Source of the DNA: Zygnema cylindricum
Taxonomy: Eukaryota; Streptophyta; Zygnematophyceae; Zygnematales; Zygnemataceae
Assembly: GCA_037447655.1 (NCBI GenBank)
Contig: JBBHKE010001887.1
Coordinates: forward strand, 42,501-106,500
Direction: 5' to 3'
DNA: 64,000 nucleotides
The notes under the pieces are model-generated. The model made no database searches and was not told where the DNA came from. It was given only the letters and a program-made list of their open reading frames with translations. Made by a program: the position numbers and the translations under genes. Positions 33,849 through 58,545 of this stretch are shown piece by piece (the first letter of the stretch is position 1; the number at the start of each line of letters is the position of its first letter).

Positions 33849-35041
33849 TGTTGAAATTTAAGTATTTTCTTGGTCTAGAGATTGTAAAATAAAAAGGCAA
33901 AAAGGGGACACTGACAACCTACCTCTAACTCTTCACTCAAGTCCCCACACTTGTCGCAGTCACTCAAGACTTGAAGAGGAGTGTTATCCATGGCTGCCTA
34001 GGCTGTCCAAAGTGGACAGGAAGGCAATTCTTAATAGAGTTATCTAAAAGGTGTGACTGACCTAGGATTTGATCCTGGTACCTGTCGTCCGTCAAACTAG
34101 CCATTCGCTTTAACCAACAAGCCTAAATACAGTGCTAGAGTATAATAGGTTTGACAGATATTTATATTGGTACACGTTGACTAGTTCGTCTAACGGGAAT
34201 AGATACGTAATGCATAGATACAGTTTTGTATAGTACGGAGTACGATTTAATGTATTTTATGAAACGGATACCGCGCATTTGTTTCGAACGCGAAACAAAT
34301 ATCGCACGTATATTTTCAACGGCTACAATTGTATCCGGTTTGATCGGACGGCCACGATAGGCGCCGCGATCACGGATTATGTACTTTTGACGTTTTTCAA
34401 TCATCGCCACGTCATGTGACACGTGGCGCGACAATGTTGGATTGCGGCGACTCCGGAGATTGCGGTAACAAATCCGACTATGACACGTGTCGACATTTTG
34501 GCCATGTTGTACAATGGCCGTACAGAAAGTACACCAGCACCTATACTTTTCTGTACGACACACTAATTTGATTGGTGCCGTACTTCAGTAGATAGAGTTT
34601 GAGAGAGGGAATATGACTTAGAAAATTTTGGGTAAGTAGCTACCTCTCCCAGAGAGCACCTTGTATAAATGGCAAACTTTGGCCAGCCATAACTATCAAT
34701 TTACTTGACCATTTTCAGTGATTCTTTTTGCTGCGGACTCAGGGGAGTCCAGGCTACACAAGGGTGTAGTCGGTCAGAGTTTTTGTCTGCCATGGTGGCG
34801 ATATTTCTAAGGGAAAGTCAAAGTGGGTGAATGTGTCCAAATCTCATATTCTAACTTTGCATTTTGTGGTAGAACTAACCACACAGAAAGTGTTATTTCA
34901 CAAGGGTGAATCTATATTTGGGTTATAATTGTCAAGGGGTCAGTCATTTGGGTTTATATCAACTTGGAGTCGGCACTATCTAGATAAGCTTTTTTTTTGG
35001 ATTTGCTTACTCTGAGGGCCAATGGAGGTCTCAGAGTTTCA
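33849..35041 (+). mobile_element. Solo Copia LTR, 1193 bp, with perfect TSD
   Basis: Starts TGTTGAAATTTAAGTATTTT, ends GTCTCAGAGTTTCA, and shares blocks with the other Copia LTRs: CTTGTCGCAGTCACT, the GATTTGATCCTGGTACCTG tRNA-like module, the GTAC cluster and TCAGTAGATAGAGTTTG. The 5-bp duplication TGGAT is perfect (33844–33848 and 35042–35046). It is more diverged than the copy at 24373, so probably older. Confidence 0.92.
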
Positions 35042-35808: not shown

Positions 35809-38300
35809 CTTTACTTGTACGAATACGTACTTCAAAAGTACAATCTTTGGCAAGGTGACGTAAGTGACTGTTCTCAACCAAAATAATTATTGCCATGATC
35901 AATTCCCTATCTTTTCTATTTCTTTAAATAACAACTTTACCTTGTAATTGAAAGTACTTATTTTTCTTTGGTCGATTGAAAGTTATACGTATTGTCACGC
36001 TGCTTTTGCATTGCTTAGATAAAGGCGATCTATTAGTAGATTTTTAAATTACTTCTTTGTTCCTCCATTGCTGCAGTTATCCACCAACCCTAAAAGTTAT
36101 TTATCTCATTTCGATGCTTCGCCACTCTCCTCCATGTTGCGAGTCCTGTCCATAGTTGTACCACACTATTCTCGTTCAGAATGTATGCTTCAGTGATATT
36201 CCACGTTTTGGTGTCGCCTATGTTTGCGCAATAGTCATTTGATGATGTACTTTATGTTAAGTATTTTAAACAAATGGAACTCCATATTATTGCTTAACTC
36301 ATCCTCACTTCATCATCTTCAATGTTTCTTCCTTTGTGACGACGTTATGTAGCTAACATTTAACGCATTTTGTCGGGTAGTTATGTTGCAATACGCCAAG
36401 ATTATAAATAATGACCATCCATTAGGTCATTTGAGTAATACAAAGTCTGAATGAATGAGATAGTATCTACAATATCCATAACGGTACTAAATAATGTCAA
36501 TTTACTATTTAACAGCTATTTCGGCTGCATTATTACAAACCATGTATAAACCAAGAAGTTTATTTTGTACTTAACCAGCTTAAAAAAAAGTTCACGCTAT
36601 TATCAACAAAGGAGTTTACATTTGTTTTAGATACAGAGACAATACAATCTTGGCTGGGCATACTTGAATGGCACATTTATATTGATTCCAACTGCCAATT
36701 CCTTCACCGGTTATTTATGGTTGAACAGTCTCCATTTTTTTGGTTTTAGCATTTATCAGCATATATATCATAAGCCTCATCATGTAGCTTGTAAGAGTCT
36801 CCTCAATTCTTTCTGCTCTAAGAGACACTGATTACAGCATCGCGGTTTTTGTTTAACTTGCAAGCTATTTATTTTTTGCTTGGTTTGCACTCTTTTTTTA
36901 ACAGCGTCAAAATTGCGAACGGAAAATTTAGTCGTGAATTTTGCCGTATTTTGTTGTGCATCACATCAAAATTTCTATTGAAAAAAATCTTAGCACCAAA
37001 AATTGCAATACCATTGGAGGTCTACAAAAAGTATCGAACACAAGTTCGAGTTTTGTGTGGCCTTCCAAAACGCAGGACGGAACTGAAACCACCTTGTCAG
37101 TTTTCCGTATGTGTTGACTGACCTACTGTACTTTCTCGACACCTTTTCTTCTTCCATTTTCACGGCCAGGTGATGTCGCACAAAAATGACTGCGTGTCTC
37201 TCGACAAGGAATCAACAATGGACAAATGATGATTGGTCCAATTCTTCTTGGGGCGTTTATCGGATATGGTGTGGTGGGCTCCAATAGTCGCTTGTATATT
37301 TAAGGAGGAAATGGGGAGTTTCTTTCGTCTTTATCTCGGTGGCAAACGAGTGTTAGGGCCAGATTTGTCACTTAGGAAGACAGCGGGTGGACAACAGTCT
37401 CCATATTTACACATACTTGATACGTGGGCCGAAAAGAATGGCAAATGGGGAATCCCTCCCTCTAAGCCTCTCCATCACGTTGCTCGAACAGGCAACCTTT
37501 GCACTCTCATTTGGGTATAAAGCTGAATATCTGGGAATTGGATAACTTTGAATCCAATTCATTGGTTTATACTTTGGTGTTTTGAAAAAGTGTAGAATTG
37601 TTTAGAAACTGGGATGGCCAAAGTCTTTCATTCAATAAATCTTACATAGTTGAAATGTAACTTCGATATGTTTGTTTGTGCAAAAGGGAATCCTTACTAC
37701 TACAACGCGGCTTTAAATGTGTTTTTCGAGTACTGCTATCGTGATTCTCGGATCATCACATTCTTTAGTTGGTTTTTCTATGGACAACTTTCTATTCTAT
37801 TTATAGCCTTCATGTTGAGTGCCTTTGAAAGCTTGGAAGGTGCAAACACCTGTTTGTGATCTGATCTTCCTATCTTTTTAACTATGATTTTTGCAACTAC
37901 TTCCCTTCACTGCAAATTTATTTCAATAAGACTTTACTTTTTGATGATTTTTGCAAGTGCTTTCCTTCACCACGGATTTTTTTCAAAAAGATAAACAAAC
38001 AATTTCACATCTCTCTCTGGCGATCGTACCACCAGACACATCCTTGCAGTGTACGCACACTTCCTAAAATGCAAAATTTTGAACGCAATGGATGTCGGCA
38101 TAATTTGCATCCAATTTCTCATCTGCAAGTATGTTTCTGGCGATAACATTCTCAGAGTGAGTTTTGAAATTGTTTGTTTATATCGTCAAAAACTATCAGT
38201 ATATAAATAAGGGAACGTTGTTCACCTTCGGGGAAACCCTTATATAGGCGCCGTGTCTGTTTTGGATTTTTTCCGTCACACGGCCGTACCGCGGGCACGA
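35809..38300. other. Gene-poor region, nothing recognised
   Basis: Several short open frames (for example 36849–37121 and 37233–37520) show no motif I recognise and no convincing splice context. No repeat structure was found. Confidence 0.4.
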
Positions 38301-38302
38301 TG

Positions 38303-38765
38303 TAGCGCTGCCGCCCACGCTGGCACAATATTAAGCTGCCGGCGACGTGGCACAATGTTACGCTGCCGGCGACGCTGGCACAATGTCACGCTGCCGGCGA
38401 CGCTGGCAGAATATTACGCTGCCGGCGACGCTGGCAGAATGTCACGCTGCCGGCGACGTGGCACAATGTTACGCTAACAGCGACGTGGCACAATGTTACG
38501 CTGCCCGTGACGCTGGCAGAATGTTACGGTGCCGGCGACCCTGGCAGAATATTACGCTGCCGGCGACGCTGGCAGAATGTCACGCTGCCGGCGACGCTGG
38601 CACAATGTCACGCTGCCGGCGACGCTGGCAGAATATTACGCTGCCGGCGACGCTGGCAGAATGTCACGCTGCCGGCGACGCTGGCACAATGTCACGCTGC
38701 CAGCGACATGGCACAATGTCACGCTGCCAGCGACATGGCACAATGTTACGCTGCCCGTGACGCTG
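38303..38765 (+). repeat. GC-rich 28-bp minisatellite, ~17 copies
   Basis: The unit CGCTGCCGGCGACGCTGGCA plus CAATGTCA (28 bp) recurs with alternating endings (CAATGTCA, GAATATTA, GAATGTCA). Some copies are 26 bp (GACGTGG in place of GACGCTGG). Because 28 is not a multiple of three, the array cycles through all frames and stays open in all three forward frames. GC content contrasts sharply with the AT-rich surroundings. Confidence 0.92.
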
Positions 38766-39884: not shown

Positions 39885-40240
39885 CCCTATGGGTGTTGTT
39901 GCAAAGTGTGTAGACCCCAGTACTCATATTCGAGTTGAACAAGAATTCACAATATGTGATCTGACAATGTACGAACTTACAAGATATGAACTGCAAATGT
40001 ACGAACCGACAATGTATAAAGAGACAGTATATAAACAGACAATATGTGAACCAACAATATGTGAACCAACAATATATAAACCTACAAGATATGAATCGCC
40101 AAAGTACGAATCGACAATATATCAATCGAATATTTATAAACCGACAATATATGCACTGGAAATATACGAACCAACAATATGTGAACCAACAATATATGAA
40201 CGGACAACAAGAAAGAGGGAGAGAAGAGAGATAGAAGACG
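39885..40240 (+). repeat. 15-bp minisatellite, copy B
   Basis: The same flank (CATATTCGAGTTGAACAAGA) leads into about 17 copies of ACAATATATGAACC(G/A), 39946–40203, followed by a GA-rich tract (40205–40300). A 165-codon open frame (39889–40386) spans it; its central half is the PTIYE pentapeptide repeat and its tail is Arg/Glu/Lys-rich. I treat it as a repeat, not a gene. Confidence 0.8.
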
Positions 40241-42414: not shown

Positions 42415-43370
42415 TAACTTTTCAAAAACAACATATGCTGTTAGCTGTTTGTAGCAATTTAGTTCAGGTTCAGCTGACCAGTGAGTCATTTATTACATTA
42501 AGTCAAAGCTTGGCACTTCCGTGTCCTTTTAGTACTTTGTCTTAAAAGCTATGGAACAATTAATAACTTCCGGCCGCGGATCTAGCCGTAGTCAGAGGTC
42601 CAACTTTTTGCCCCAAGTGTAGTACACATTATTTTGTCTTATGTCAGTTCGGTTGCCGTTGCTGGCCGCTCATTGGCTAATAGCGTAGGTTTGACTTTTG
42701 GACCTGAAACTGGACAAGCTTTTGTTGTATAAGGCAGTTGGTGGCGAAGGAGACAGGTTGCTTTTCAGTACTGTCTCCTGTGAAAACCCTCAGAAAATCC
42801 AACAAACTTTCTTTTGGAAGAATCTTTGTTTTGTTTGACTCTATTGCCATCTTTGTTTTGGATCTGTCCAGTATGGGAATCATAGTTCGGGCTGGTAGTT
42901 GGCACTATCGTCCCTTTGGGTGATTTTGGGATCTTTCGCTGCTTGAAATTGAGAAGAGTCCGGTTGGTTCCGAACTGCGGACACCCAGGGTTGAAGGAGT
43001 ACCATATCTATTTACACTACCATCGGGAGAGAGTTCGCCCTTGTCTCTTTGTCCTCGTAAATTGCCGGGGTATGTTAAGCTTGTTTCGCCATCTTATATA
43101 TCTTCCATCATATATTTTATTTCTGTGGTCAAGGTGATATTGTTAAATCTGAAACAACCATTCCTATTTATTTTCTATGTGTCCACGTGGTAGTGCATTT
43201 GTGTATTCGCTTGTAGTTTCTTTTGCTTTGGCGTGAACTCCTCGGAGTAAAACTACCTCTTCCTTGTATCGAAACAGTGGGTTTTGAGGGAACAAATGCT
43301 GTAGACTTCCCGTGAATAAGTAAATTGGAGGACCGACCTGATTACCGAGTACCCAAATCCCTTTCCCTCG
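42401..43370 (+). repeat. LTR-like repeat of the Ty3-like family, plus orientation
   Basis: Reading the plus strand from about 42401, the sequence aligns by eye with the minus strand of 55686→54700 over nearly 1 kb. Shared blocks are TTAGTTCAGG, AACTTTTTGCC, GTGTAGTACA, TTTTGTCTTATGTC, GTATAAGGCA, GAAGGAGACAGGTTGCT, CAGTACTGTCTCCTG, CAGCAAACTTTCTT (with changes) and CAAGGTGATATTGTTAA. The copies are clearly diverged and in opposite orientation. It contains TTGTATAAGGCAGTTGG, a likely TATA region. Confidence 0.75.
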
Positions 43371-43743
43371 CCTAATGGGAAAGGAAGGGGGAAGGAGATC
43401 TTTTTGCCCCCCCCCATGCACTTTCTCTTACTACCGGTTCCGGTGTCTCTCTTATCTTTGCATGCATATCTATGGGAAAGATGGGGGGGTCAGCAGTGGG
43501 CATGATCATTATTCTGGGAAGCCTTTCGCATTTGGGGGGGGGGGGTTTTTTGCAGGAAACCGAGGCCAACTACCCCGGGCTGTAGGCCCTTCCCTCGAGA
43601 TTCTCGGGCACGTTCGACAGATCAGCCTTAGTTATTGGAGTGGCCATCCGCCCTGTCCCTTAAATTTGTTGCAGGGTAATCTGGGGATCTATTTTGTGGT
43701 TCTGTAAGAGCTTGTTCAGGACTGACAAAGGTATCAAATTGGT

Positions 43744-44490
43744 CTAGTACGCCCGAACTCTGTGAGCCCTGGATCTCAGTTGAGCCGCATTGAAAACAAG
43801 TGGAGCTCCTAGAATCTGCTTCACTTTATTCCAGCTATTTGCGACTTGTTTTCTCTTATCATCTCCCGGGTGGACATTCTCCAAAACGTACCCCACTGGT
43901 TGGTCTTGGGATTGCTGCAGCCAGGAAAGTAATTTGATCATCTGGAGGAAGGTTCGACTTCTGCTATCTTGATGTCCCTCGCCTTTCCCGGCTAGAGAGT
44001 ATCCTTGACATGGCCATCCTGCAATCACCAAATCTACCCGCTCCAGCACAACGAGATGTGGCTTAAGGATATTGTCTATATTTTGCGGGACATTTCGGTG
44101 CGATTTGCAGATGGCGGATACCGGAAGTTGCTGGGGGTACAATTGGTGGAGTTGTTGGAGTCGGTATTCACTGACAGCCCGAGCATCCGGTGAAATTTCC
44201 ACGGCCACATATGACTCCACTTTATGCCTAGCCTTCAAGACAGCTTTGAGGTCCGAGCTAATTCCAGAAAATAAGGATAATATCCGCAGTCCAAAATCCG
44301 GGATAGATAATGACACCACTTGTCGATTGAATTTTTGGTTTTCGGGCGGAACTTCCGAAGATTCCAACCGAGGTTCTTTTTCGTTCACAAAAACAGCTGT
44401 CAAGGATTTGTCCACTTCATGCCGAAGTTTTGTTATTTGTAATAATCTGTTCTGGTATCCTTCTTCCCACCGCTTGGAAATAGGGAATTG
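43744..44490 (-). pseudogene. DNMT3-like C5 cytosine methyltransferase domain in the retroelement
   Basis: Continuous open frame of about 249 codons from the TAG at complement(44491–44493) to the TAG at complement(43744–43746). C5-methyltransferase motifs occur in canonical order: motif I LRILSLFSGISSDLKAVL (SAM binding), VAVEISPDARAV (motif II region), DLVIAGWPCQGYSLAGKG (motif IV, catalytic Cys in PCQ), VLENVHPGDD (motif VI ENV) and AQLRSRAHRVRAY (motif VIII). The YVAVEI and SRAHRVRAYWTN-type sequence is closest in my reading to DNMT3/DRM enzymes. The terminating TAG sits where homologues have Trp (Y-W-x-N); the frame continues beyond it (TNLIPLSVLNKLLQ) until TAA. The domain follows the protease in the same frame. 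All catalytic motifs are intact, but stops upstream and downstream make this copy a probable pseudogene. Confidence 0.85.
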
Positions 44491-44493
44491 CTA

Positions 44494-45036
44494 TATTATG
44501 TCTGCGATATCGGTGGCGCTGGCGAGCAGTTCCGTGGGTGTGTGAGTAGCATAGACGGGATAACATCATGCGACGGGAGCATTATCTTTCCCCCTATTCT
44601 ATAGATCCAGAGGAACCACCACCTTGACTCCTTCGGGATCCTCAAGATCCCGAACAGTAAACTGCTCCTTCCACACACTTAATCCCATATTCACCCTTGT
44701 CCAGGTGGCCATTCCCAATAAAATCTCAAATTGCTTACCTTCCACCACCAAGAAGGGAAGCTGAATTCGGACCTTCTTACCTGCGTTGTCGGCGAACTCT
44801 ATTAACATAGCTTTGATTATTCCATGTACCGGTTGGCTCCCACTGCTAACAATACTTAGACAGATGTCACTAGGGAAGATTTCATGTCGGAGTTCTTCAG
44901 GCATTTGCTACAGAGCCGATGTGGTGATTAGAGTTGGGAGTGCTCCTGTATCGACCACTGCGTCTTGATACCCGCCGTATCCGTTGAGTTTGAAATTCCT
45001 CGTCCTGTTGAGAATTAGAGCCACAGATAACGTTTT
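44494..45036 (-). pseudogene. Retropepsin-like aspartic protease of the Ty3-like element
   Basis: In the frame that runs into the methyltransferase, the active-site loop reads DAVVDTGALPTLITT (D-T-G-A), followed by FPSDICLSIVSSGSQPVHG, LPFLVVEGKQFEILLGM (the hydrophobic–Leu–Gly flap region of retropepsins) and VWKEQFTVRDL. In-frame stops: TAG at complement 45037–45039, 44908–44910, 44599–44601 and 44491–44493, and TGA at complement 44566–44568. The protease fold signature is clear although the copy is dead. Confidence 0.75.
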
Positions 45037-45039
45037 CTA

Positions 45040-46305
45040 GTCCCTATCCATCATAGAGGTCTTTGGGTCTGCTGACCAAAAAACGGATCTGGCCTGATCG
45101 GCCCTGTATTTCTCCCCTCCTGCATGGATTTCCTCTCCGAGGGCCTGGATGAGAATTTCGTCCGGCAAGTTATGGGAAGAGGCCACTGTTTTCACGTGAG
45201 TGAGAGCGTAGGGCATTAGATGCCTTACTAACATCACTGCTGGTTTGGAGGAAGGAGGTTGAATTTTCGGCGACGAATTGGAGGAATCTGTTGGTTCCAG
45301 CGGTTGATTTTTCTCCCCCACCGGTTCATTCTTCTCCCCTCTCCCTGCTTCCTCAATTTCCTTGTCAGATTCTGGCGCGGGCGGCGTTTCTGGCGTGTTA
45401 TCCTCCGGGCGTTCTGCCAAATATTTTTCGAACCAGTCTTGGTTGTCACGCGTCTCTTCCTCCTTTTCTCGTTCCTCCATGTTCCTTGTTTTGGTTTTCC
45501 TGTAATTTTCGAATCCCGGAGGCAGTTTCGTTGCGGCTGGTGGAGGTGGGTTTGTAGATTTGATTCCGAGACCTATGTCGTCGTTCAGGATGACGGCCCT
45601 GAGGTGAAGGACAGAGGTCCAGTAGCGTTCCTGTTATGGTCTCGTGGAGCGAGCTTTTGCCTTTCCCTTTGTTGCGCCAAGGTTGAGTTGCAGAGCTGCC
45701 TGCGATTGTCCCCCACACCGACATTCCAGGCTCCTGAAAGAAAGGTTTGTGCGTGATGTGCTTTCGGAGGTTCCATGTCCCATCCCATCACCTCGTCATC
45801 GTCTTCGCCCGCTGCTGTTACCTGTTCAAGCTCTGCCAGCTTCTGTAGTAATTCCCTCTTTCTCCGGTGGAGTTTTTGGGCGGCCGTCAGAGCGGGAGTC
45901 CTGGAGGGCGATCCTAATCGCAGCGCTGCCAATTCTGCAGCCATGGCTGCCACTTGCTAGCTCTGCTATTGGATGATAACCTCCGGGGTTAATCGGGCTT
46001 GACCGGTTGGCTATCGTTCTGGGTTCTCCGGGGTGCGGCGTCCCCAAGGGTAAAGAAGCTGCAGCGGGAGAGGATTCACGGCTGTTTCACCTTCTTCGGT
46101 GAACAATGCATATTGCATCATCTCTTTAGGAACTCTATTCTTTCGGAAGCATTGCCCTTCCTTGTGACCCATGAAACCGCAAGCCTCACACTTAGAGCCT
46201 TCGGTGGTATATTTTCCCCGCGATTCATTTGAGATTTGCGCGTCATCAAATTTTGGAAGTTTTATCTGTCGCAATTGGGCTTGCGACATCTTTGCAGTCT
46301 CAGAT
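45040..46305 (-). pseudogene. Ty3-like gag C-terminus, second zinc knuckle and linker
   Basis: Begins in frame with the piece beyond the Copia insertion. It encodes MSQAQLRQIKLPKF, then the zinc knuckle CEACGFMGHKEGQC (CX2CX4HX4C, intact). After a stop, other frames encode a charged leucine-rich segment (AAQKLHRRKRELLQKLAELE) and a Pro/Glu-rich linker (MEEREKEEETRDNQDW). Frameshifts break it into four frames. Confidence 0.65.
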
Positions 46306-47355
46306 TGTAGAAACTAATGGTTTTATTAGTATTTTCTAGGTCTAAAAAGAAATATAGAAGTCGAGGCAGTCTATCTCTAACTTCTCTCTCCAACTCTCAA
46401 ACTTGTCGCAGTCACTGAGAAATTGGAGAGGAAGCTAGAGCCATGGCTACCTTGGCTATCCTGAGGTTTACGGGAATTTTATATTAGAGTTTATTTATTT
46501 GATTAAAAGTTAAGTGCCGGGGGCAGGATTTGATCCTTGCACCTACCGGCCGGCAGTCAGGAATTAGCCGGTAGCCTTAGCCGTTAAGTCTAGCAGTAGT
46601 GTTACGTAACATATAGTTTGATATTTATTTAAATATCTATACGTGCGATAAACCATTTAACTGGAATGAATTACGGGATACATAGATCCAGTAATATATA
46701 ATGTACGACTTACGGTACGGACAACAATCAGTACCGCGCATTTGTTTCGTAAATGAAACAAATACCGCGCATATATTTATTACGGATACGATTAAAGCCG
46801 AATTTAATCGGACGGCCGGGATTAGCGCCGAGATCGCGGAGGAAGATTTCGGCGGTTTGTGGCCATCGCCACATCGGATGACGCGTGGCGAAATTCCGTT
46901 GGATTGTGGAATCTCCGGAGATTATGGCACCGAATCCGGATTTGACATGTGTCGACATTTTGGCCATGTCGTACAATGTCCGTACATAAAGTACACCGGT
47001 AGCTGTACTTTTGCGTACAGAACTCAATTTTTGATTGGTTCCGTACATCAGTAGATAGAGTCTGTGAGAGAGATAGGACTTAGAAAAATTAGAAGATAGG
47101 ACCCCCTCTCCCAGAGAGCTTCTGTACAAAAGGTCAACTTTGACCCTCCATAACTTACTGCTCAGGGGAGCAAATTCAGAGATTCTTTTTGCTATCGACT
47201 CACGGGAGTCTTGCCTTCATAGGGGTGCAGGTGGTCAGAGTTTTTGTCTGCCAGGGTGGCAGTTATTTTTGCCGGAACACAAAGGGGTCAGGATTATCCT
47301 AGAGGCTTCTTGGAAGCTGTCTACTCTGAGGACTTATGGAGGTCTCAGAGTTTCA
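46306..47355 (+). repeat. 5' LTR of Copia element A
   Basis: Begins TGTAGAAACTAATGG and ends GTCTCAGAGTTTCA (TG…CA). It contains an antisense tRNA-like module (46518–46610), six GTAC tetramers within 46972–47046, and the start-region block TCAGTAGATAGAGTCTGTGA. Confidence 0.92.
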
Positions 47356-47370
47356 GGTTATGGGCCCACC
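47356..47370 (+). other. Copia primer-binding site: initiator tRNA-Met anticodon arm
   Basis: GGTTATGGGCCCACC starts at the first base after the LTR. It is the complement of the anticodon-arm sequence GGTGGGCCCATAACC of plant-type initiator tRNA-Met, recalled from known sequences. Drosophila copia likewise primes from a half-tRNA cut in the anticodon arm. The ATG inside it (47360–47362) is also the gag start codon. Confidence 0.8.
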
Positions 47371-48040
47371 CTCTAGGGTACCAATCTTTAATGGAATTGG
47401 CTTCATATACTGGGAAAGTATGATGATAGGAGCTCTATGCGAAAAAAGGTTTTGGGGGATAGTGAGTGGACGGTTGGGGCGACCATCAAGTCTTGGAATT
47501 ACTCCAGGGTTTGGAGGAACCAGATTCACCAAGAAAGAGGACCCACCTACAACGGAGGAAACAAAAGAAGGAGAGGTGGTGGACAAAGGAAAGGAGAAGG
47601 AGACGACCACACCAATAGCAACTGGTTCGACATTCATGTCACCTATTCCGAGGAATGAGGAGAATGATACTGAAACCTGGGACTTCAACAATATGGCGGC
47701 AAAGCACTTCATCCTACGCCATCTCACTCAAGGACTTGCATGTCCTCATTTGCAGGTAGAAAGAGCATCCGATCTTTGGATGGCTCTCATAGAGATGTAC
47801 CGAAGTGGTACGATTCAGCAACAACAGTTGGCTGATCACAAAGTTAAGGAGTATGTATACAAAGGGGGAAATATGTTGGATTTTTGCAATGAGCTTGCTA
47901 CACTCTTCATGGAGCTACAGAGTGCGGGAAAAGATTTTAGTGAAAAAGAAAAGGTTAACTGTTTACTGATGAAGTTACCTGATGAGTTCGTGAACATAGT
48001 TTACCATGTGCAGGACTTGCCTGACTCAAGGTGGATATAG
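47360..48040 (+). pseudogene. Copia A gag (UBN2-type capsid)
   Basis: Starts MGPPSRVPIFNGIGF inside the primer-binding site. The N-terminal block FIYWESMMIGALCEKRFWGI and the LWMALIEMY…DHKVKEYVY and MELQSAGKDFSEKEKVNCLL segments are typical of Copia gag of the UBN2 type. It forms the virus-like particle shell. Translation stops at TAG 48038–48040, where the related element at 58932 has TGG (WKWNTVV), so the stop replaces a Trp. The frame continues into the zinc knuckle. Confidence 0.85.
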
Positions 48041-49231
48041 AACTCAGTGGTAGGGATGATTCTCGTTCAAGGGAATACAATTGAGATCCGAAGGGGAGGA
48101 AAGAGTGGCCAAGCCTTGGCAACAGCGACTGATTGGAGGAACAGGGATTCCCGAAAACCGGTCGGAAACTATGGGGGTAGGGAGCAGAAAAAACAGGCCG
48201 ATGAGTTCGAACCAAGGGCTCCCAAAGGACTATGTCACTTTTGTAAGAAACCGGGGCACTATATGGGAGAGTGCACTAAGCTAAACGAGCTTTGGTTAAA
48301 GGAGGGGCAGACCGGTGGTACCCCGAGAGGAAAGAAAAATACCCTTGTCACACAAGTACTTGATGCTGAATCCGAGGACGAGGACGATGAGCTCGTTTTG
48401 GATGAGGAGTTGGAGGCGAAAAATGAGGTCGAAATTCCACGAAGGCAGAAATGTGCTTACGGTGGATTGAAAGGTGAAGCAGGCTGGATTGTAGATTCAG
48501 GTGCCTCCATGCACATGTGTAAGGATAGACACCTGTTCACTAAGATAAGAAAGATTCCCACCGTAGAGATAGAGTACGGGGATGGGAGGATAGTCACCAC
48601 TACTCTCTTAGGATCGGTAGATCTAAAAGTGTTAGTAGAAGGAAATACATCCATATTAACATTCTCCGATGTATTGTTTATCCCGGAACTGAACAAAAAC
48701 CTTATCTCTACATCTGTATTAGATGATAAGGGTTTTTTTACTAGCACTAGGGAAGGAGTCTTTACTGCTAGTTTTGAGGAGGATGTCTATTTCATTGCTG
48801 AGAAAGGTAGCCATGGGATGTTTAGGCTGATCTTAAGTAATGAAACGAAGAAACTTTATTATGCTGGTGTTCATGATATTATGATGTGGCATAAGAGGCT
48901 TGGGCATGTGAATCTAGATAAGTTAAGAGAGATGAAAAAGATGGGAGTGGTGGAAGGGATTCAGTTCAGTGAGAGTGATGATATAAGTGATTGTAGTGGG
49001 TGTGCTCAAGGTAAAGCACACAGATTACCCTTTCCTAAAACAGCCACCTACAAGGGAGAAAAAATTCTAGATCTAGTACACACAGATATTTGGGGACCGG
49101 CTAGAGTGCCCTCACCGGGGGGGAAGAGATTTATGATGACTATAACTGATGATTGGTCTCGGTATTCCCGGGTGTATTTTTTGAGAAACAAGTCAGAAGC
49201 TGAGGACTGTTTTAGACAATATAAAGCATGA
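48041..49231 (+). pseudogene. Copia A gag–pol: zinc knuckle, protease, GAG-pre-integrase, integrase start
   Basis: In the gag frame after the amber stop. Zinc knuckle CHFCKKPGHYMGEC (CX2CX4HX4C). An acidic linker, then protease WIVDSGASMHMC (D-S-G-A active site intact). The GAG-pre-integrase zinc motif is WHKRLGHVNLDKL…CSGCAQGKAH. The integrase begins LVHTDIWGPA with its first catalytic Asp. It ends at the deletion junction after FRQYKA, so the rest of the integrase is missing. Confidence 0.88.
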
Positions 49232-50376
49232 TTAAATCTCTTTCTGGTTTGAAACAGGCGCCTCGACAGTGGAATAAGAAGCTTGATGAGTTTCTTACCG
49301 GTCTAGGATATATTCGGATCAGCTCAGATCACTCAATCTATGTTTTCGAAGATGAGGAAGGTTTTATATTTATTGCAATTTATGTTGATGATTTGTTTGT
49401 TTTAAGTAAATCAATGGAAAAAATTAATAAACTGAAAACCGATCTTAAGGGGAGATTTGAAATGAAGGATATGGGGGAAGCAAAATATATTTTGGTAATT
49501 CAAGTAGAGAGAGACCGAAAAAGAAAAATTATAAGATTGACTGAAAAGGAAGCAATAGGGAACATGCTTGAAAAATTTCAAATGGATAAAGCTAATAGTT
49601 GTACAACTCCAATGGAGTTGAAGAAGGGAAGTGAGGGGAGTGAGGAAGAAGGAGTCATAGTCTTAGACGAGGAATTATCTCCTGATGAACAGAAGTTCAT
49701 GCAGACTATTCTTTACAGGCAAGTAGTGGGAAGTCTAATCTATTTTATGAATTGTACCCGGCCGGATTTAGCTGCAGCTGTAGGAGTGCTGAGTAGAAGT
49801 CTAAATGCTCCCACTAAGAAGGATTGGGAGGCAGCTAAGAGAGTCCTTAGATACTTGGTAGGAACTAGAGATCTATAGTTGCATTTGGGTGGGGAGAATA
49901 CTGACATCACTACTTGGAGTGATGCCAGTTATGGTGATGCTCCGATGAGGAGATGTACTTCTGGATATGCATTATATGTGGGTGATGGGGCTTGCTGTTG
50001 GAGTAGCAAACAGCAAAAGGTTATTGCTCAGTCCACCATGGAGGCTGAGTATATGGCCTCTTGCTCTGCTGTAAAAGAATTGATGTGGGTCAAGTCTTTG
50101 CTTGGTGAGCTTGGTCACCTTAAGAGTGGTGTGCAGAAAATATTTTGTGATAATCAGGCAGCAATCGCTATTTCTGCCAATCCTAAACACCATTTTAAAG
50201 CCAAACACATGGACATCAGACTCAACTTTGTTAGAGAGAAAGTAGAAAACAAAATAATCAGTTTAGAGTACAGACCAGATAGTGAGATGGTAGCAGATAT
50301 GATGACCAAACCTGTGCCTTCCCCTAAGCTAATTTTTTGCAGGGAGAAGTGTGGTCTGAAATTAAAGATTGACTAG
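49228..50376 (+). pseudogene. Copia A RT (C-terminal half) and RNase H
   Basis: RT from SLSGLKQAPRQWN, with catalytic FIAIYVDDLFVLSKS (YVDD intact). A TAG at 49876–49878 sits at the RT–RNase H boundary, where the element at 56801 has TGG (RDLWLHLGG). RNase H follows in frame: TTWSDASYGD, STMEAEYMAS, FCDNQAAIAIS, KHMDIRLNFVREK. It ends at TAG 50374–50376 shortly before the polypurine tract. Confidence 0.88.
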
Positions 50377-50389
50377 AAAATAAGGGGAG

Positions 50390-51437
50390 TGTAGAAACTA
50401 ATGGTTTTATTAGTATTTTCTAGGTCTGAAAAGAAATATAGAAGTCGAGGCAGTCTATCTCTAACTTCTCTCTCCAACTCTCAAACTTGTCGCAGTCACT
50501 GAGAAATTGGAGAGGAAGCTAGAGCCATGGCTACCTTGGCTATCCTGAGGTTTACGGGAATTTTATATTAGAGTTTATTTATTTGATTAAAAGTTAAGTG
50601 CCGGCGGCAAGATTTGATCGTTGCACCTACCGGCCGGCAGACAAGAACTAGGCGGTAGCCTTAGCCGTTAAGTCTAGCTGTAGTGTTACGTAATATATAG
50701 TTTGATATTTATTAAATATGTATACGTGCGATAAACCATTTAACTGAAATGAATTACGGGATACATAGATCCAGTAATATATAATGTACGACTTACGGTA
50801 CGGACAAAAATCAGTACCGCGCATTTGTTTCGTAAATGAAACAAATACCGCGCATGTATTTATTACGGCTACGATTAAAGCCGAATTTAATCGGACGGCC
50901 GGGATTAGCGCCGAGATCGCGGAGGAAGATTTCGGCGGTTTGTGGCCATCGCCACATCGGATGACGCGTGGCGAAATTCCGTTGGATTGTGGAATCTCCG
51001 GAGATTATGGCACCGAATCCGGATTTGACATGTGTCGACATTTTGGCCATGTCGTACAATGTCCGTACATAAAGTACACCGGTAGCTGTACTTTTGCGTA
51101 CGGAACTCAATTTTGATTGGTTCCGTACATCAGTAGATAGAGTCTGTGAGAGAGATAGGACTTAGAAAAACTAGAAGATAGGACCCCCTCTCCCAGAGAG
51201 CTTCTGTACAAAAGGTCAACTCTGACCCTCCATAACTTACTGCTCAGGGGAGCAAATTCAGAGATTCTTTTTGCTACCGACTCAGGGGAGTCTTGCCTTT
51301 ACAGGGGTGGAGGTGGTCAGGGTTTTTGTCTGCCAGGGTGGCAGTTATTTTTGCCGGAACACAAAGGGGTTAGGATTATCCTAGAGGCTTCTTGGAAGCT
51401 GTCTACTCTGAGGACTTATGGAGGTCCCAGAGTTTCA
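50390..51437 (+). repeat. 3' LTR of Copia element A
   Basis: Matches the 5' LTR with about two dozen differences by eye, mostly in and after the tRNA-like module, whose B box here is damaged (AAGATTTGATCGTTG). It follows the polypurine tract directly. Confidence 0.92.
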
Positions 51438-51569
51438 GAGATCGTGGCGTCGGCCGATAATTCTCTTTGTTCACCGGTGTTTTATCGTTTGACCCTCCTC
51501 CTTGCTTCCTTTCTTGTTGCCTCTTTGTTCTTTCAGCTCTCTCCTTCTCCCATTCCTTCTGCTTAAGAG

Positions 51570-52364
51570 CTAATTCCGGTTTGAGCTTCCGGGGCATCGC
51601 TTCCATCCATGACCTGTTTGTTGACTGTTTAAACAGTTATAGAGGAAGACATGGTCATCGGCCCCCATGGCAGGTTCGGATCCGCTATCCACCACCTGTT
51701 TCCCCTTGAGCTTCCGCAAGGCTAAGTGTTCGACCGACTCTTCATGTTCGGGAGGCATTTCTTCGGCAAATCGTGCAAAGTTCCCTCGGGTTTTCCCGAT
51801 TACCGCTTTTTCCTGGGCCTCGCGGTGGACAAAGTGATCATAAAGCTTCATTGCGGCCACAAAGATTTCTTTGGTGGTTGGATTGACGTCCTGGATGGCC
51901 TGTCCAGCAATCCAATTATCGAGGGCTGCCTGCCCCGTCGGTCTGAACGAATTTCGGACGACGATGAAATATTTGGTTGCCATGGCTGGAAGATCAATGG
52001 TTGAGAGTTTGGTCTTTTGACAGTGGCTGGACAATCTGTTAAAAAAAGTCTGGGGTGTTTCACTCTTTTGGCAACGGAATTCCGTGAATTCCTTGATAGC
52101 AGATTCATTCCTCTCGGTGTAAAAGAGTCTCCAGGCATTCAAAAGAGTGGTACAGGGGGTTGGGTTTGCAACCATCCGAGTGGCTGCCTTGGCCTCCTGG
52201 ATGGCCTGAAGCTGAGCGACGTAGGCTCGTCCTTGTGCCTGCAGTTTCATGTCCTCTGTGAAGAGGGAGGTGACAGGAGCGGCTGCAGCGGCAGCCAAGT
52301 CTGCTTGCGCCTGCAAGACTGCCTCATCAAGGATAGGGTCTGATATTTTGATGTTGGGAGCCAT
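51570..52364 (-). pseudogene. Ty3-like gag capsid and first zinc knuckle
   Basis: MAPNIKISDPILDEAVLQAQ starts the ORF. The capsid-like region carries LLNAWRLFYTERNESAIKEF, SETPQTFFNRLSSHCQKT and GQAALDNWIAGQAIQDV, resembling retrotransposon gag (helical, 'FxxYxxRLxxxxxK'-type). Near the end the zinc knuckle reads CLNSQQTGHGWKRC: CX2CX4HX4C with the second Cys changed to Ser by one base (AGT for TGT). A stop follows; an overlapping frame (51606→, MEAMPRKLKPELALKQKE) continues to the Copia insertion point. Confidence 0.72.
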
Positions 52365-52366
52365 TA

Positions 52367-54644
52367 GAATGGTTGTCGCTCCTTATAGTCTGCCAAAGCT
52401 CCACCAGCAAGATAGTTCACCATCATGGGGAAAAGCGTGGTCTCGAAGTCATCCGGAATGGCTGCGCCCCTGTATTTGTTGATTTCAGATTGGGTGAACG
52501 ACTTCCACAACAATTCAAAATCAAAGAAAGCGATTCCCGAGCTATCTCCTGTAAAGATCCTCGCGTCCCCCATTTCTTTTTCCTCCTTTGCAAGGTTGGT
52601 GAACTGAGAAGAGGGTGGTCCAGTTGGGCTGGCAAACTGAACCGGTGAAATTACCCCGGGATCCGCGTCGGGTGGCTCGGAGCCTCCTCCTTCTCCGGTA
52701 GAAGGTGCAGCTTGACGAGAGATGGCACTACCCCCCACTGAGGAAGCTCCGGTTACTGGTGGGATAGTGAGATGACCTGTATCTCCCTGGAGTTGGCCCT
52801 TGGGAAACGAGGAGCTTATCACCTTGGGAAAAGCGGCCCGAAGTCCGGCTCCTCTATACCCAGGAGAGGCCTGTTCCTCTCGGCGAACTGTTTCCACCGA
52901 GGGAATGTGGAGAATTGGTTCAATCACCGGTGGTCCTTGAGAGATTGGTGGAGAAGGGGAGGGAGATGAAAAAAGACTACGAGGGAAAGGTGTCTGTCTC
53001 CGTGTACGCCTTCTGGAGGTTTCTGGTGGAGGAGTTCCTTCGCTGGAATCGGGAGAACGTCGTTGGGGAGGAGAGTAGGCAGGAACGTCGTACTTGTAGG
53101 GTAAGATAGGTGGTCCTGGTGACCCACGGACTGCAGCGGCCGGAGAAACAGAAGGCGAAGGAGATGATGCCTGAGGTGGAGATGGAAGAGAGTGGAAAGC
53201 CGAAGGGAGATGTGTTGTCTCTGGTCGGCTTGTAATAATACCACGGCCTCCGCAGTTGAAGACCGAGCCACTGAGACAACAGTAGGACGCTTAGCGGAGG
53301 CGGCTGCAACGTTATCCGGTAAATCTGCACCCATCCCCTGTTTGTTAGGTCCTGTTGTTTCCCCCCCTTCCCGCTGAAGAGGAGGCTCCGGTCTAAGTTC
53401 CGAAGAAATCCCGGGAGCTGGCATCTCCGTAGGGGTTGTCTGCACTGTAGGTTGTCTCTCAGCCGAGGGACCTGTCTCTCTAGGAGGAGCTACCTGTCCA
53501 CTAAGGATCCCTCCTGATATTCGTCTAGCCTCCCTTATGAGGAGCAATTCCTGTTCGAGGGCCCTCTTCCTCTCTTCTTCAAGAGCTTCCCAATCGATGG
53601 TGACGGGTCCAGCCCCCGCCGTAGCCTGACTCTGGGATCGCAAGATGTCAACCAGTTTTTGTGTACTGCTCACCACCCCTGAGAGATCCGCAATCCCCAA
53701 ACCCGGTACCTCGGGATCGGTGGGTCTAGAACGCCACAACCCCTCTGATGGTCAAACCACAGGAGCAGAAGGAGACTTTGAGCTCGGAGAGGTGGAATCG
53801 GAAGGGAAGAACGGTTCCGCTTTAGGTCGGGGAGCAAACCTGCCCTTGCGGTCCCGATGATCGAACCTGTACCCCTTCTTTGGCTCGGGTAACCCTCGCT
53901 TGCTGGTCCCTTCCCCGGCTCGTGTCCGAGGGACCGCCCCGCCGTGAGCTGGCCTGCTGGGTGCGGTGTCCTGAGATGGGGTGGTTTGCTGGTAGGAAGT
54001 TGATGGTCCTTCGGTTGCTCCGGTACAGAGGTTGAGGAGCCACTCTCGGATGAACTGCTGAGTATCTCCACTACACCTCCCACTGGACGCACCACTCTGG
54101 CTCGATCTGACCTGGCCACCCGCTGCACCAACTCTTTCTTAACCTTCAACTCATGGAGATCATGAAGGGCTAAGATTTCTTTGCGACGTGGCCGGGTAAG
54201 ATCGGTCAGGATCTTAGGATCTATGTACATTTCTGCTATCGGTGCCTTAGATCGGGTATAGCGACCGATCTCGGGAAGGTGACCAGAAACCGCTTCCTTG
54301 TGGGCCAACCCCTTTCTACGGCTTTTAGGGGATTAAGGCGGCCTCTCCGCCTTCTCCGCAGCCCTAGCTCTGGCTGACTCGGACAACGTTGGGAAGTTCT
54401 CCGGTGAAAAGACAGGTGGAGGTGGAGGAGAGAGTCTCCCCTCTGGGTGCGTAGGAGGAGTGTCAACCGCAACCTCTGGGGGCATCTCTCCCTTAAGAAA
54501 CCGCTCTACGTGTACAGGTGAGCCAAAGGGGGTTGCTTCCTCGGGCCTCTGTGACTCTTCCTCCTGGGCCACCGCTTCCTGCCTCTCCTGCTCGTCCGAT
54601 CTGACACCCGGAAGATCCTTATCCTGGACTTCTCCTCCCCCCAT
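52367..54644 (-). pseudogene. Ty3-like gag N-terminal region, Pro/Glu-rich, frame-broken
   Basis: Open segments in alternating frames (54644→54333, 54308→53670, 53739→52924, 52927→52364) encode Pro/Ser/Glu-rich sequence such as PPTHPEGRLSPPPPPVFSPE, with basic and coiled-coil-like stretches (WEALEEERKRALEQELLLIR). The last segment ends FPMMVNYLAGGALADYKE. Its TAA overlaps the ATG of the next ORF in the arrangement TAATG, so the capsid ORF could be reached by reinitiation or frameshifting. Confidence 0.6.
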
Positions 54645-54659: not shown

Positions 54660-55686
54660 AAGATCTAAATCCCCTTATAAAAGTACTCCGATCTGAGCAC
54701 CTATCCTCTTTAACCTAAAGAGACAGGTGGCTGTTTCAGTACTGTGACTATCTGTTGGAAGCCTAACAAAAATCCTCTCAAAATCCACTATTCTGGTACA
54801 AAAGATTCTGGTAATCCACCCCGGAAGAAACCCGACCAGAGCCCTAAAAGGACTACCAAAGAGAGAACCCAGATGCTTCCACTCAGGAAAATGAATGGAT
54901 AGAAATATAAAAATGCTGTCTCAGAATTAACAATATCACCTTGCCCTTAGAAAATAGAGATATAAAGTTAGAATGTGGAATAATAGCAAGCGAGCTTAAC
55001 CTACCCCCAAAACGTAACGTGGAAAACCAAAAGGAGACGAAATCTCCCCCTGAAAACCCCGAAACAGGTAGGGCCTCCTTAACTCCTCGGTTTCCGCGAC
55101 CCGGAACCGGCAAGACCCTTCTTGGTTTCCAACAAACACCAGTCCCCAAACCGCCCAAAACAGGAAAGACGGTGCCAACCACCCAACCGGACTACGATTT
55201 CCACAAAGGACGAAGCAAACCAAGATGGCAATAGGGTCACAATCACAAGCAAAACAAAAGTTCTCCACAAGAAAGTTTGCTGGAATTTCTAGGGTTTTTC
55301 TCAGGAGACAGTACTGAAACAGCAACCTGTCTCCTTCGGCCCCAAGTGCCTTATACAAGCCAAGTTTGTCCTACCGATAGTACCAAAGTCAAAGCAATAC
55401 TAGGAGCCAATCACCGGTCAGAAATTGTTATCGTACAGACATAAGACAAAACAGGTTGTACTACACTCGTGGCAAAAAGTTAGGCGACTATCTCCGGCTA
55501 GATTAGAAGCCACGTGGTTTTCTATGATACAATCCAGAGCAACAAAGTTCTAAATTGACGTGAAACGCCTAACTTTGACTCACATTAATAAATGCTTTAT
55601 TCGGCTGGTGGACCTGAACTAACGTCCTACTGATAGCCAACAGCAAAATCTACCAGACTATCCCAAAAGTTACGCGGCGTTCCACA
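54660..55686 (-). repeat. LTR-like repeat of the Ty3-like element, minus orientation (5' LTR)
   Basis: Read on the minus strand from TGTGGAACGCCGCG (complement ending 55686) it leads straight to the gag ATG at 54644, so it is the 5' LTR plus leader. It contains GTATAAGGCACTTGG (TATA-like) and GAAGGAGACAGGTTGCTG. The homologous copy at 42401–43370 is in the opposite orientation. The exact LTR–leader boundary is not determined. Confidence 0.72.
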
Positions 55687-55687
55687 A

Positions 55688-56234
55688 TGTAGCCCCCAAT
55701 GGGACAGTTAGCAACTGGTCACATGTAACAGGATGGGAATCTTTGGAACGAAGTAACTTTGTCGTCCGGCCTCCGTTAGGCGCGAAATAAAGTACGTTCC
55801 GTTCAGTTAGGAAGATAGAAGAATCTAGTCCAGCTGAGTGCGCTCTTTTCCCCGTACTTTAAGGACCGTACAGAGGAAAAAGGGCCCGAGAATCCTTGGT
55901 AAGATAAAAAGGGTGCCTGTGAAGCACATGAGCTTGAAAAACACTACTTCAAGACTTAACGGTTAAGGATACCGGCTACCGGCAGCTTGCCGTCCGGCAG
56001 GTACCACGTTCAAATCGTGTGGCCGCCACATATCTTTTTACTTAATAAACCCCAAATATATATATTTCCCGTAAACCTCAGGATAGCCTAGGTAGCCATG
56101 GCTCTAGCTTCCTCTCCAATTTCTCAGTGACTGCCACAAGTTTGAGAGTTGGAGAGAGAAGTTAGAGGTAGACTGCCTCTACTTCTTTCTTATTTTTGAC
56201 CTAGAAAATACTTTAAAAACCATTAATTTCTATA
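55688..56234 (-). mobile_element. Copia LTR fragment, minus orientation
   Basis: The reverse complement begins TATAGAAATTAATGGTTTTT and continues TTCTAGGTC, CTTCTCTCTCCAACTCTCAA, GCAGTCACTGAGAAATTGG and GAGCCATGGCTACCTAGGCT, matching Copia LTR starts. It includes a well-preserved tRNA-like module (plus strand 55950–56030; T arm CACG-TTCAAAT-CGTG) and GTAC sites. It is shorter than a full LTR, abuts the Ty3-like LTR on its left and Copia pol sequence on its right. Confidence 0.7.
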
Positions 56235-57484
56235 AAAACCGCCTTCCTCAACGGTGATCTAGAGGAAGAAATCTTCATGCGGCAACCAGAAGGTTTTGTA
56301 GAGGAAGGAGAGGAAAGCAAAGTCTGCAGACTTATAAAGAATTTATATGGACTAAAGCACGTCCCCTGACAATGGAATAAGAAACTAGATGAGTTTTTTA
56401 CCAGTCTCGGGTATATTCGGATCATTTCAGGCCAATCTATTTATATGTTTGAGGATGAGAATGGTGTGATTTTTATTGCAATTTATGTGGATGATTTGCT
56501 GTTATTGATTAAGTCTATGGAGAAGATAAATAGGTTAAAGAAAGATCTGGGAAGTAGATTTGACATGAAGGATTTAGGAGAGGCTAAATATATTATGGGA
56601 ATTCAAATGGAAAAAAATAGGGAGAAGAGGATCATCAGACTTACACAGAAAGAGGCTATAGGAAATATGCTGGAGAAATTCCAGATGGAGAATGCAAACA
56701 GTTGTACCACTCTCATGGGCTTGAACAAAGTAAGTGATGGAAGTGTAGAAAGAGGAGTGATAATGTTAGATGATCAGATGAGTCCAGAAAGTGGCAGTTT
56801 ATGAAGTCTATTCCTCACATACAGGTTGTAGGAAGTTTGATTTACTTAATAAATTGTACTAGGCCTGACATAGCTGCAGCAGTTGGAGTCCTCAATAGGA
56901 GTCTTAATGATCGTATAAAGAGAGATTGGGAGGCAGCTAAGAGAGTAATGAGACACCTGGTGGGAACTAGGGATCTATGGTTGCATTTGGGAGGGGAGCA
57001 CACTGACATCACTACTTGGAGTGATGCCAGTTATGGTGATGCACCTATGAGAAGATGCACTTTTGGGTATGTATTGTATGTGGGGGAATGTGCTTGTTGT
57101 TGGAGCAGCAAGCAACAAAAGGTTGTTGCTCAGTCCACTATGGAGGCTGAGTACATGGCCTCTTCATATGCTGTGAAAGAGCTTATGTGGGTGAAGTCCT
57201 TATTGCAAGAATTCGGGTACATGAAGAAGGGAGTACATGAAGTGTTTTGTGACAATGAGGCTGCAATTGCAATTGCAGCCAATCCAAAAAACCATTTCAA
57301 AGCTAAGCATATGGATATAAGATTGAACTTTGTGAGGGAAAAAGTTGAAAATAAAATTGTGAATTTGGTGTATAGGAGAGATGGGGAAATAGTGGCTGAT
57401 ATGATGACAAAGCCTGTGCCGTCTCCCAAGCTAAACTATTGTAGAGAAAAATGTGGATTAAAAGAGAAATTAAAATTAGACTAG
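56235..57484 (+). pseudogene. Copia B RT C-terminus and RNase H
   Basis: RT: EGFVEEGEESKVCRLIKNLY, then TGA 56367–56369 (CGA in relatives, R of APRQW), then IFIAIYVDDLLLLIKS (YVDD). A frameshift near 56801 precedes VVGSLIYLINCTRPDIAAAV. At the RT–RNase H joint this copy keeps Trp (RDLWLHLGG). RNase H: TTWSDASYGD, STMEAEYMASS, FCDNEAAIAIA, KHMDIRLNFVREKVENK. Confidence 0.85.
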
Positions 57485-57497
57485 AAAATAAGGGGAG
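56235..57497 (+). mobile_element. Copia fragment B: RT and RNase H, 3' part only
   Basis: Starts inside RT (KTAFLNGDLEEEIFMRQPEG). It runs through YVDD to the end of RNase H (57482–57484 TAG) and the polypurine tract AAATAAGGGGAG, directly followed by an LTR at 57498. The 5' part is missing at an abrupt junction with the inverted LTR fragment. Confidence 0.85.
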
Positions 57498-58541: not shown

Positions 58542-58545
58542 GGTT

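What the first reader, a model, noticed from the sequence alone, without database searches (positions are those of the whole stretch)
43744..46305. Retroelement carrying a DNMT3-like cytosine methyltransferase fused downstream of its protease
Seen: on the minus strand a retropepsin (DTGA) is followed in the same frame by C5-methyltransferase motifs I, IV (PCQ), VI (ENV) and VIII, with gag zinc knuckles upstream. Known: C5 methyltransferases inside retrotransposons have been reported in charophyte algae and dinoflagellates (de Mendoza et al. 2018, Nature Communications). Inference: this is such an element, with the enzyme closest to DNMT3/DRM. Here no RT or integrase follows, so the domain order or truncation differs from a simple gag–pol. 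A selfish element that can methylate DNA de novo could hide from or rewire host silencing.
Basis: partly seen in the sequence, partly recalled or inferred. Interest (0 to 1): 0.92.

Follow-up and report, generated by a model that had tools for sequence, protein, structure and literature searches.

The report
Retrotransposon carrying a DNA methyltransferase
The window holds a broken copy of a large family of retrotransposons whose polyprotein contains an enzyme that looks able to methylate DNA, a rare arrangement described before in a few algae, here in a further genome and joined to a chromatin-reading zinc finger.

Summary
On the minus strand a gag CCHC knuckle, a retropepsin and a C5-cytosine methyltransferase (PF00145, E 2.6e-11) lie in order. 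The window's own genome (352.8 Mb, unnamed) shows what it is. A search with this methyltransferase scored 150 places, and one with a second lineage (42% identical) scored 123. The methyltransferase is part of Pol: gag–PR–MT–RT–RNaseH–IN–PHD. RT follows MT in 19 of 19 nearest loci. One 10.6-kb copy is a single 2395-aa frame with 100% identical A repeats and a 4-bp target duplication. The window copy looks odd because a Copia element (46306–51437) sits in its gag and a sister element's A–B repeat cuts its methyltransferase at 43620; RT, IN and PHD are lost. Terminal repeats are split as A–coding–B–A–B. This is the KnitGypsy-Dnmt3 kind of de Mendoza 2018, in a genome probably not Klebsormidium nitens. 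Not found in what I read of that paper: a C-terminal PHD finger, a self-priming-type PBS, and integration ends (TGTC…GACA) inside the replication-defined LTR. The enzyme is under purifying selection. Its origin (host DNMT3 or phage-type) is unresolved; DRM does not fit. Activity and benefit are inferred.

The parts
54746..55940 (-). 5' terminal repeat A1 of the methyltransferase element (both limits approximate; abutted by a Copia LTR fragment at 55940-56235)
   Evidence: 75% identity to the A repeat of copy C1374 over 55699-54899; start by eye from TTTTTCAAGCTCATGTGC against TGTCAAGCGCGTGTGC
54717..54745 (-). self-priming-type primer binding site: reverse complement of the presumed transcript start inside A1
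   Evidence: 26 nt at 96%, 101 to 76 nt before the gag ATG (29-32 nt); the fold pairs the two stretches
51438..54644 (-). gag, main part, with frameshifts
   Evidence: ORFs in three minus frames; MGGGE start shared with relatives; no Pfam match at the cut-off
46306..51437 (+). Copia element inserted in the gag (not part of the element)
   Evidence: LTRs 97.2% identical; RVT_2, Pol_BBD, gag_pre-integrs; flanks CAGAT and GAGAT
46011..46305 (-). gag C-terminal part with CCHC zinc knuckle
   Evidence: CEACGFMGHKEGQC in ORF 46011-46313
44599..45036 (-). retropepsin-like aspartic protease (VVDTGA), with one in-frame stop inside
   Evidence: Asp_protease_2 E 9.7e-4; 83% identical to the protease of C1374
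43620..44325 (-). C5-cytosine methyltransferase domain, motifs I-VIII, in-frame TAG at 43744-43746, cut before motif IX
   Evidence: PF00145 E 2.6e-11; 94.4% DNA identity to L002 ending at 43619
43322..43619 (+). B repeat of a sister-subfamily element, ending in CACGTTCGACA at 43619: it cuts the methyltransferase
   Evidence: 75.7% to the post-Pol B of C2026, 85% to C1254 over a stretch that spans B and part of A
42436..43318 (+). A repeat of the same sister-subfamily element, lacking about 190 bases at its left end
   Evidence: 87-95% identity to A repeats of C161, C2026, C1254, C928 and a stretch downstream of C544

Best explanation
Shown: this is a decayed copy of a multicopy Ty3/Gypsy-type LTR retrotransposon whose polyprotein is gag-PR-C5 methyltransferase-RT-RNaseH-integrase-PHD finger. 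It is broken by a nested Copia in gag and by a sister element's A-B repeat in the methyltransferase. The enzyme is under purifying selection as part of Pol, and some copies are young. Inferred: the protease releases or the polyprotein carries the methyltransferase in the particle, where it methylates the new double-stranded cDNA or the freshly integrated copy, while the PHD finger at the end of integrase reads histone tails at the target. Inferred from anatomy: reverse transcription is self-primed; the LTR made by it is B+A (PPT before B, PBS after A); integrase acts on TGTC...GACA ends that meet at the B|A boundary inside that LTR, so that joined cDNA ends give A-coding-B-A-B with a 4-bp target duplication.
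For: MT inside Pol: RT after MT on the same strand in 19 of 19 nearest loci L002-L020 (L009 and L010 look like one insertion on two contigs) and in 10 of 10 copies picked for long frames; some protease match upstream in 17 of 19 and 10 of 10 (one displaced by 6.9 kb). Open frames: L022 1458 aa and L024 1442 aa hold MT-RT-RNaseH-IN-PHD; C1344 is one 2395-aa frame from gag to PHD. Youth: A1 and A2 of C1344 100% over 931 bp, B1 and B2 99.6%, TSD TTGG. Selection: dN/dS of MT between two open copies 0.14, RT 0.08, PHD part 0.15. The motif IV Cys is present in 24 of 24 rows with at least 286 of 345 residues spanned (L017 and L040 are one place), 20 of them reading PCQ. PHD: PF00628 E 4.8e-11 in C1344. 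PBS; PPT and ends; TSD GGTA in C928; B|A junction GACA-NN-TGTC in C1344, C1374 and C2216.
Against: No activity, expression or methylation data. The window copy cannot make an active enzyme. C1344 has ECQ, not PCQ, in motif IV. The TSD is exact in 2 copies (C1344, C928) and 3 of 4 bases in C2026; in C1374 and C544 the bases after B1 do not match the left flank. C928 has a single A and a single B, which may be secondary loss. C1407, identical to C1344 in the domain, has a shortened A2, and no A1 was found where I expected it. PBS-like matches were missing in C1254 and C2494. PHD is below the Pfam cut-off in the window's lineage (E 2e-4 to 4e-3), and some copies have lost its Cys. Copies carry an excess of private transitions at C/G sites (CHG 10 of 26, CG 11 of 32, CHH 71 of 290, A/T 39 of 445), so the element does not plainly escape host methylation.
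Confidence: 0.8

Rival explanations
1. The methyltransferase is a host gene or unrelated fragment that the element merely landed beside.
For: In the window alone no RT follows, and the copy is broken.
Against: Same frame as the protease without net frameshift; RT follows in 19 of 19 relatives; one open frame from gag to PHD in C1344; more than a hundred places scored for each lineage.
Confidence: 0.01
2. A non-autonomous element that encodes only gag, protease and methyltransferase and has long terminal inverted repeats (42436-43178 against 55645-54899, 69%).
For: The inverted pair flanks the coding part and no RT lies between. C544 has a like inverted pair at 71%.
Against: The left repeat is 87-95% identical to the A repeat of a different subfamily and is joined to that subfamily's B, while the right one is the A next to the window's own gag; MT homology stops sharply at 43620. 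In C544 a Pol with RT, IN and PHD, its own B and about 4.4 kb more lie between the pair.
Confidence: 0.03
3. The methyltransferase was captured from a phage- or bacterium-type C5 enzyme and not from the host's own DNMT3.
For: A profile of the element enzymes scores six phage enzymes 48.5-78.7 bits and two DNMT3 segments 59.6-60.0; element enzymes form one clade, 100/100, on a long stem; motif VIII reads WTN.
Against: DNMT3 is far the best among solved structures; the DNMT3 segments were shorter than the phage proteins; long branches meet, and the six phage enzymes were picked from the best hits; de Mendoza et al. place the K. nitens relatives as a divergent Dnmt3 clade (section read).
Confidence: 0.35
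4. The enzyme is kept as an RNA or structural component (e.g. binding rather than methylating), not for DNA methylation.
For: Motif IV is ECQ in C1344; MT diverges faster than RT between subfamilies (mostly 69-74% against mostly 80-95% identity to C1374 in L001-L020).
Against: Catalytic Cys, ENV, SAM motif and motifs IX-X kept; purifying selection; the 2018 study reports de novo CG methylation by retrotransposon DNMTs, though its tested SymbioLINE enzyme failed (abstract and discussion).
Confidence: 0.15

Closest known systems
KnitGypsy-Dnmt3 of Klebsormidium nitens (de Mendoza et al. 2018, PMC5890265)
   Same: Gypsy-type Pol with the methyltransferase inside the Pol ORF, intronless multicopy, purifying selection, repeats whose structure is 'the same as that of a DIRS retrotransposon' (section 9 and figure legends read)
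   Different: Different genome (352.8 Mb); 150 and 123 scored places of two lineages; C-terminal PHD finger (the paper's main text has 0 occurrences of PHD; its Figure 4c was not visible to me); methyltransferase origin not clearly Dnmt3 here. No sequence comparison with it was possible.
SymbioDIRS-Dnmt3 and SymbioLINE-Dnmt of Symbiodinium (same paper)
   Same: Retrotransposons with a C5 methyltransferase
   Different: Tyrosine-recombinase DIRS or LINE elements; here a DDE (rve) integrase
Tf1/Sushi and Tcn1 chromoviruses
   Same: Self-priming PBS; a chromatin-reading module at the end of integrase (passages of PMC6317226)
   Different: They carry a chromodomain, here there is a PHD finger; no methyltransferase and ordinary LTR ends there (recalled)
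DNMT3A/3B/3C catalytic domain
   Same: Best solved-structure relatives, same motif order
   Different: About 25-29% identity; PCQ, not PCN; no ADD domain before it; phage enzymes are as close

Membership tests
Gypsy LTR retrotransposon with Pol-embedded Dnmt3 (KnitGypsy-Dnmt3 kind) | Gypsy-type domains (RVT_1, RT_RNaseH, Integrase_H2C2, rve) in one Pol with PF00145 | tested here: met
   L022, L024 and L041; in the window copy itself RT, RNaseH and IN are lost
Gypsy LTR retrotransposon with Pol-embedded Dnmt3 (KnitGypsy-Dnmt3 kind) | DIRS-like split repeats A-coding-B-A-B | tested here: met
   Complete in C1344 (A 100%, B 99.6%), 3' side in C2216; C928 shows A-coding-B only; C1407 has a shortened A2; the window copy has A1 only
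Gypsy LTR retrotransposon with Pol-embedded Dnmt3 (KnitGypsy-Dnmt3 kind) | Methyltransferase under purifying selection | tested here: met
   dN/dS 0.14 between C1374 and C544; within-subfamily pairs 0.14-0.47; between subfamilies 0.05-0.11 where it could be computed, with dS 1.7-3.2, near saturation
Gypsy LTR retrotransposon with Pol-embedded Dnmt3 (KnitGypsy-Dnmt3 kind) | Methyltransferase falls in the Dnmt3 clade | tested here: inconclusive
   DNMT3 best of solved structures, but phage enzymes equal in score and tree unresolved
Gypsy LTR retrotransposon with Pol-embedded Dnmt3 (KnitGypsy-Dnmt3 kind) | Sequence descent from KnitGypsy-Dnmt3 | not testable with these tools
   No K. nitens sequence at hand; protein database timed out or off
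DRM methyltransferase | Permuted motif order (VI-X before I-IV) | tested here: not met
   Order I, IV, VI, VIII, IX, X in L022 and L041; that DRM is rearranged is stated, the exact order is recalled
DIRS element | Tyrosine recombinase instead of DDE integrase | tested here: not met
   rve and Integrase_H2C2 present in L022, L024, L041; 4-bp TSD in two copies
Chromovirus | Chromodomain at the end of integrase | tested here: not met
   PHD, no chromodomain match, at the C-terminus of L022, L024, L042
C5-cytosine DNA methyltransferase | Makes 5-methylcytosine in DNA | not tested
   Needs the enzyme

The most novel reading that the evidence does not exclude
A retrotransposon that carries both a DNA-methylation writer, taken from a phage-type and not a host enzyme, and a histone reader (PHD) on its integrase, and that integrates from ends lying inside its own LTR, so that it chooses its chromatin and marks its new copy itself.
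Probability: 0.2. Interest if true: 0.8.

Novelty: new member of a known kind. Interest (0 to 1): 0.57.

Why it matters
Retrotransposons that encode their own cytosine methyltransferase turn the usual story (the host methylates, the element suffers) round. A further genome with over a hundred scored places in each of two deep lineages, one of them with a fully open, recently inserted copy, makes it testable whether the enzyme marks cDNA, new insertions or the host genome. The PHD finger suggests target choice. The mapped PPT, PBS, TSD and B|A junction give a concrete model for the puzzling DIRS-like repeats of a Gypsy element.

Tried and rejected
Terminal inverted repeats: suggested, rejected (see rivals). 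Non-autonomous gag-PR-MT element: rejected by relatives. Methyltransferase complete in the window up to 43370: I first read remnants of motifs IX-X past the TAG; rejected, since that stretch is the B repeat of a sister element. Stop codons as a changed code (most are TAG): not pursued; the TAG at 43744 replaces Trp, which fits G-to-A decay. Host name: the LFY SAM domain search gave 0 with no positive control, hence uninformative; GRAS and C_LFY searches did not complete. Zygnema cf. cylindricum SAG 698-1a_XF (359.8 Mb, 3,587 scaffolds, Copia 29.8%; passages of PMC11096116) resembles this genome in size and Copia load, but that is only a guess. Host DNMT genes: the PF00145 search (123 of 782 candidates scored) was not gone through for host exons. 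Relatives in IMG/VR and GTDB genomes: none confirmed by tblastn among 20 and 80 pattern matches. Elements with this RT but no MT: not tested, search unanswered. Structure prediction: not run; its rule does not name loci from the genome search, and a lone sequence would be a poor model.

Full report
What was claimed and what is there. The reported stretch on the minus strand holds, from 5' to 3', a gag CCHC knuckle (46011-46305), a retropepsin (44599-45036) and a C5 methyltransferase (44325-43620). PF00145 is hit at 2.6e-11. The protease is weak alone (9.7e-4, under the cut-off) but 83% identical to that of C1374, a copy with an open Pol. The frame runs from 45633 to 43620 with seven stops and no net frameshift.

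Why the window copy looks strange. Two insertions explain it. A Copia element on the plus strand (46306-51437; LTRs 97.2% identical; flanks CAGAT/GAGAT) sits in gag, so the rest of gag lies beyond it up to an ATG at 54644, preceded by the terminal repeat A1 to about 55940. At the other end, DNA identity of 91-94% to four relatives stops at 43619-43620; of the two more distant ones tested, L022 (70%) stops at 43637 and L041 gave no match. From there the sequence is, read on the plus strand, the A and B repeats of a sister subfamily ending in GACA. Everything after motif VIII is gone. I first took the 69% inverted pair for terminal inverted repeats; searches rule that out.

The family. The window lies in a 352,776,454-bp genome of 2689 contigs, unnamed; K. 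nitens is much smaller (about 104 Mb, recalled). The window's methyltransferase gave 151 matches, itself included, 150 of 1511 candidates having been scored. A divergent lineage (C1344; 42% identical to C1374 in the domain) gave 124 matches, 123 of 1851 candidates scored. I did not check the two lists for overlap by script. The 20 best loci and ten further copies picked for long frames were examined; both choices favour well-kept copies. RT follows MT in 19 of 19 loci other than the window (L009 and L010 look like one insertion on two contigs) and in 10 of 10 picked copies. Of these ten, 8 have IN and 9 the PHD-like end. The order MT-RT-RNaseH-IN-PHD is confirmed by Pfam in C1374 and C544, and in C1344 the whole order from gag on lies in one frame. 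Gag itself is named by place and CCHC knuckles: no match reaches a Pfam cut-off in the window or C1374, and in C1344 only zf-CCHC appears, at 0.007, under the cut-off. The protease stays under the Pfam cut-off in all of these.

Repeats and ends. C1344 is complete: A1 (931 bp) equals A2 at 100%, B1 equals B2 at 99.6%, arranged A-coding-B-A-B over 10.6 kb, target duplication TTGG. A polypurine stretch precedes B1, and a 17-nt exact reverse complement of a site inside A follows A1: the anatomy of an LTR equal to B+A with a self-priming PBS. Similar matches of 14-31 nt stand before the gag start in the window and in 5 of 7 other upstream halves tested (C1374, C544, C161, C1662, C928); C1254 and C2494 gave none, and C2026 could not be tested because its gag start was not found. 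The RNA of the window copy folds so that these stretches pair (z -2.97 on 20 shuffles). Yet the integrated ends are TGTC and GACA at the B|A boundary; B and A meet as GACA-NN-TGTC in C1344, C1374 and C2216. C928 is A-coding-B flanked by GGTA on both sides; this may be a single form or the result of B-B recombination. C1374 and C544 show no such duplication at the end of B1, and C2026 matches in 3 of 4 bases. C1407, whose domain is 100% identical to that of C1344 but whose right flank differs, has a shortened A2 and no A1 in the stretch where I expected it. My reading, an inference, is that the DDE integrase uses sites inside the LTR of joined cDNA ends, which gives DIRS-like repeats without a tyrosine recombinase.

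The enzyme. Relatives keep motifs I, IV, VI, VIII, IX and X in canonical order; 20 of 24 rows read PCQ in motif IV, the others PCE, PCL, SCQ and, in C1344, ECQ. Two open copies give dN/dS 0.14 for MT, 0.20 gag, 0.12 PR, 0.08 RT, 0.12 IN, 0.15 for the PHD part. Decayed pairs range to 0.47 in MT and to 0.65 in IN and PHD. A profile of the domain finds DNMT3A at 1.8e-16, HhaI 2.3e-6, DRM2 1.1e-5 and DNMT2 2.2e-4 among solved structures. Against six phage enzymes and two DNMT3 segments, however, phage Perkons scores 78.7 bits and DNMT3A 60.0. The five element enzymes form one clade (100/100) whose neighbour is unresolved. The DNMT3 segments were shorter than the phage proteins.

PHD finger. It is clear in C1344 (PF00628 4.8e-11; best solved relative PHD finger protein 12, 1.6e-16) and weak in the other lineage (2e-4 to 4e-3, under the cut-off). 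I found no report of a PHD finger with a methyltransferase in an LTR element in the searches (listings only) or by word search of PMC5890265; Figure 4c of that paper and its supplements were not available.

Host silencing. Among 18 copies, private transitions hit 10 of 26 CHG and 11 of 32 CG sites, 71 of 290 CHH and 39 of 445 A/T sites. Private transversions are also somewhat commoner there (5 of 26, 8 of 32, 43 of 290, 56 of 445). The numbers are small, but the excess of transitions at C is what methylated, decaying copies would show; it speaks against plain escape.

Literature. Of PMC5890265 I read the start (abstract to the first results), the charophyte section, the discussion and passages. 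Of PMC11096116, PMC6317226, PMC9289625, PMC11244446 and PMC9998398 I saw passages only.

Verdict. A new member, in a further genome, of a rare but published kind, with features (PHD finger, self-priming, mapped integration ends, doubtful DNMT3 origin) that I did not find in the parts of that paper I read or, for PHD, by word search of its main text.

Noticed in passing
window 46306-51437: Copia element, LTRs 97.2% identical, nested in the Gypsy gag; further Copia pieces at about 24372-25414, 33919-34806, 55940-60744 and 61350-64000. The window is Copia-rich.
   Followed up: partly
window 18997-20016 minus: Polysaccharide pyruvyl transferase domain (PF04230, E 3e-24) in an open frame of 339 aa, probably a host gene exon.
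   Followed up: no
window 9568-10110 plus: Cobalamin adenosyltransferase (PF01923, E 2e-16) exon.
   Followed up: no
window 31291-31881 plus: DDE_1 (pogo-like) transposase fragment, PF03184 E 4.8e-9.
   Followed up: no
window 38284-38765 and 39919-40222: Tandem repeats of short units, open in several frames; those near 40 kb have a 15-base period.
   Followed up: no
window 1036-1108 plus: tRNA-Arg (CCT).
   Followed up: no
L041:6345-7301 and one search list: In the second lineage motif IV of the one methyltransferase copy read is GWECQG instead of GWPCQG; C1344 and C1407 are 100% identical in the domain and have different right flanks, so that lineage moved recently.
   Followed up: partly
loci L002-L020, L026, L027: The methyltransferase and gag diverge much faster between subfamilies than RT (roughly 72% against 80-95% for the enzyme), so the domain may be adapting or be exchanged.
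   Followed up: partly
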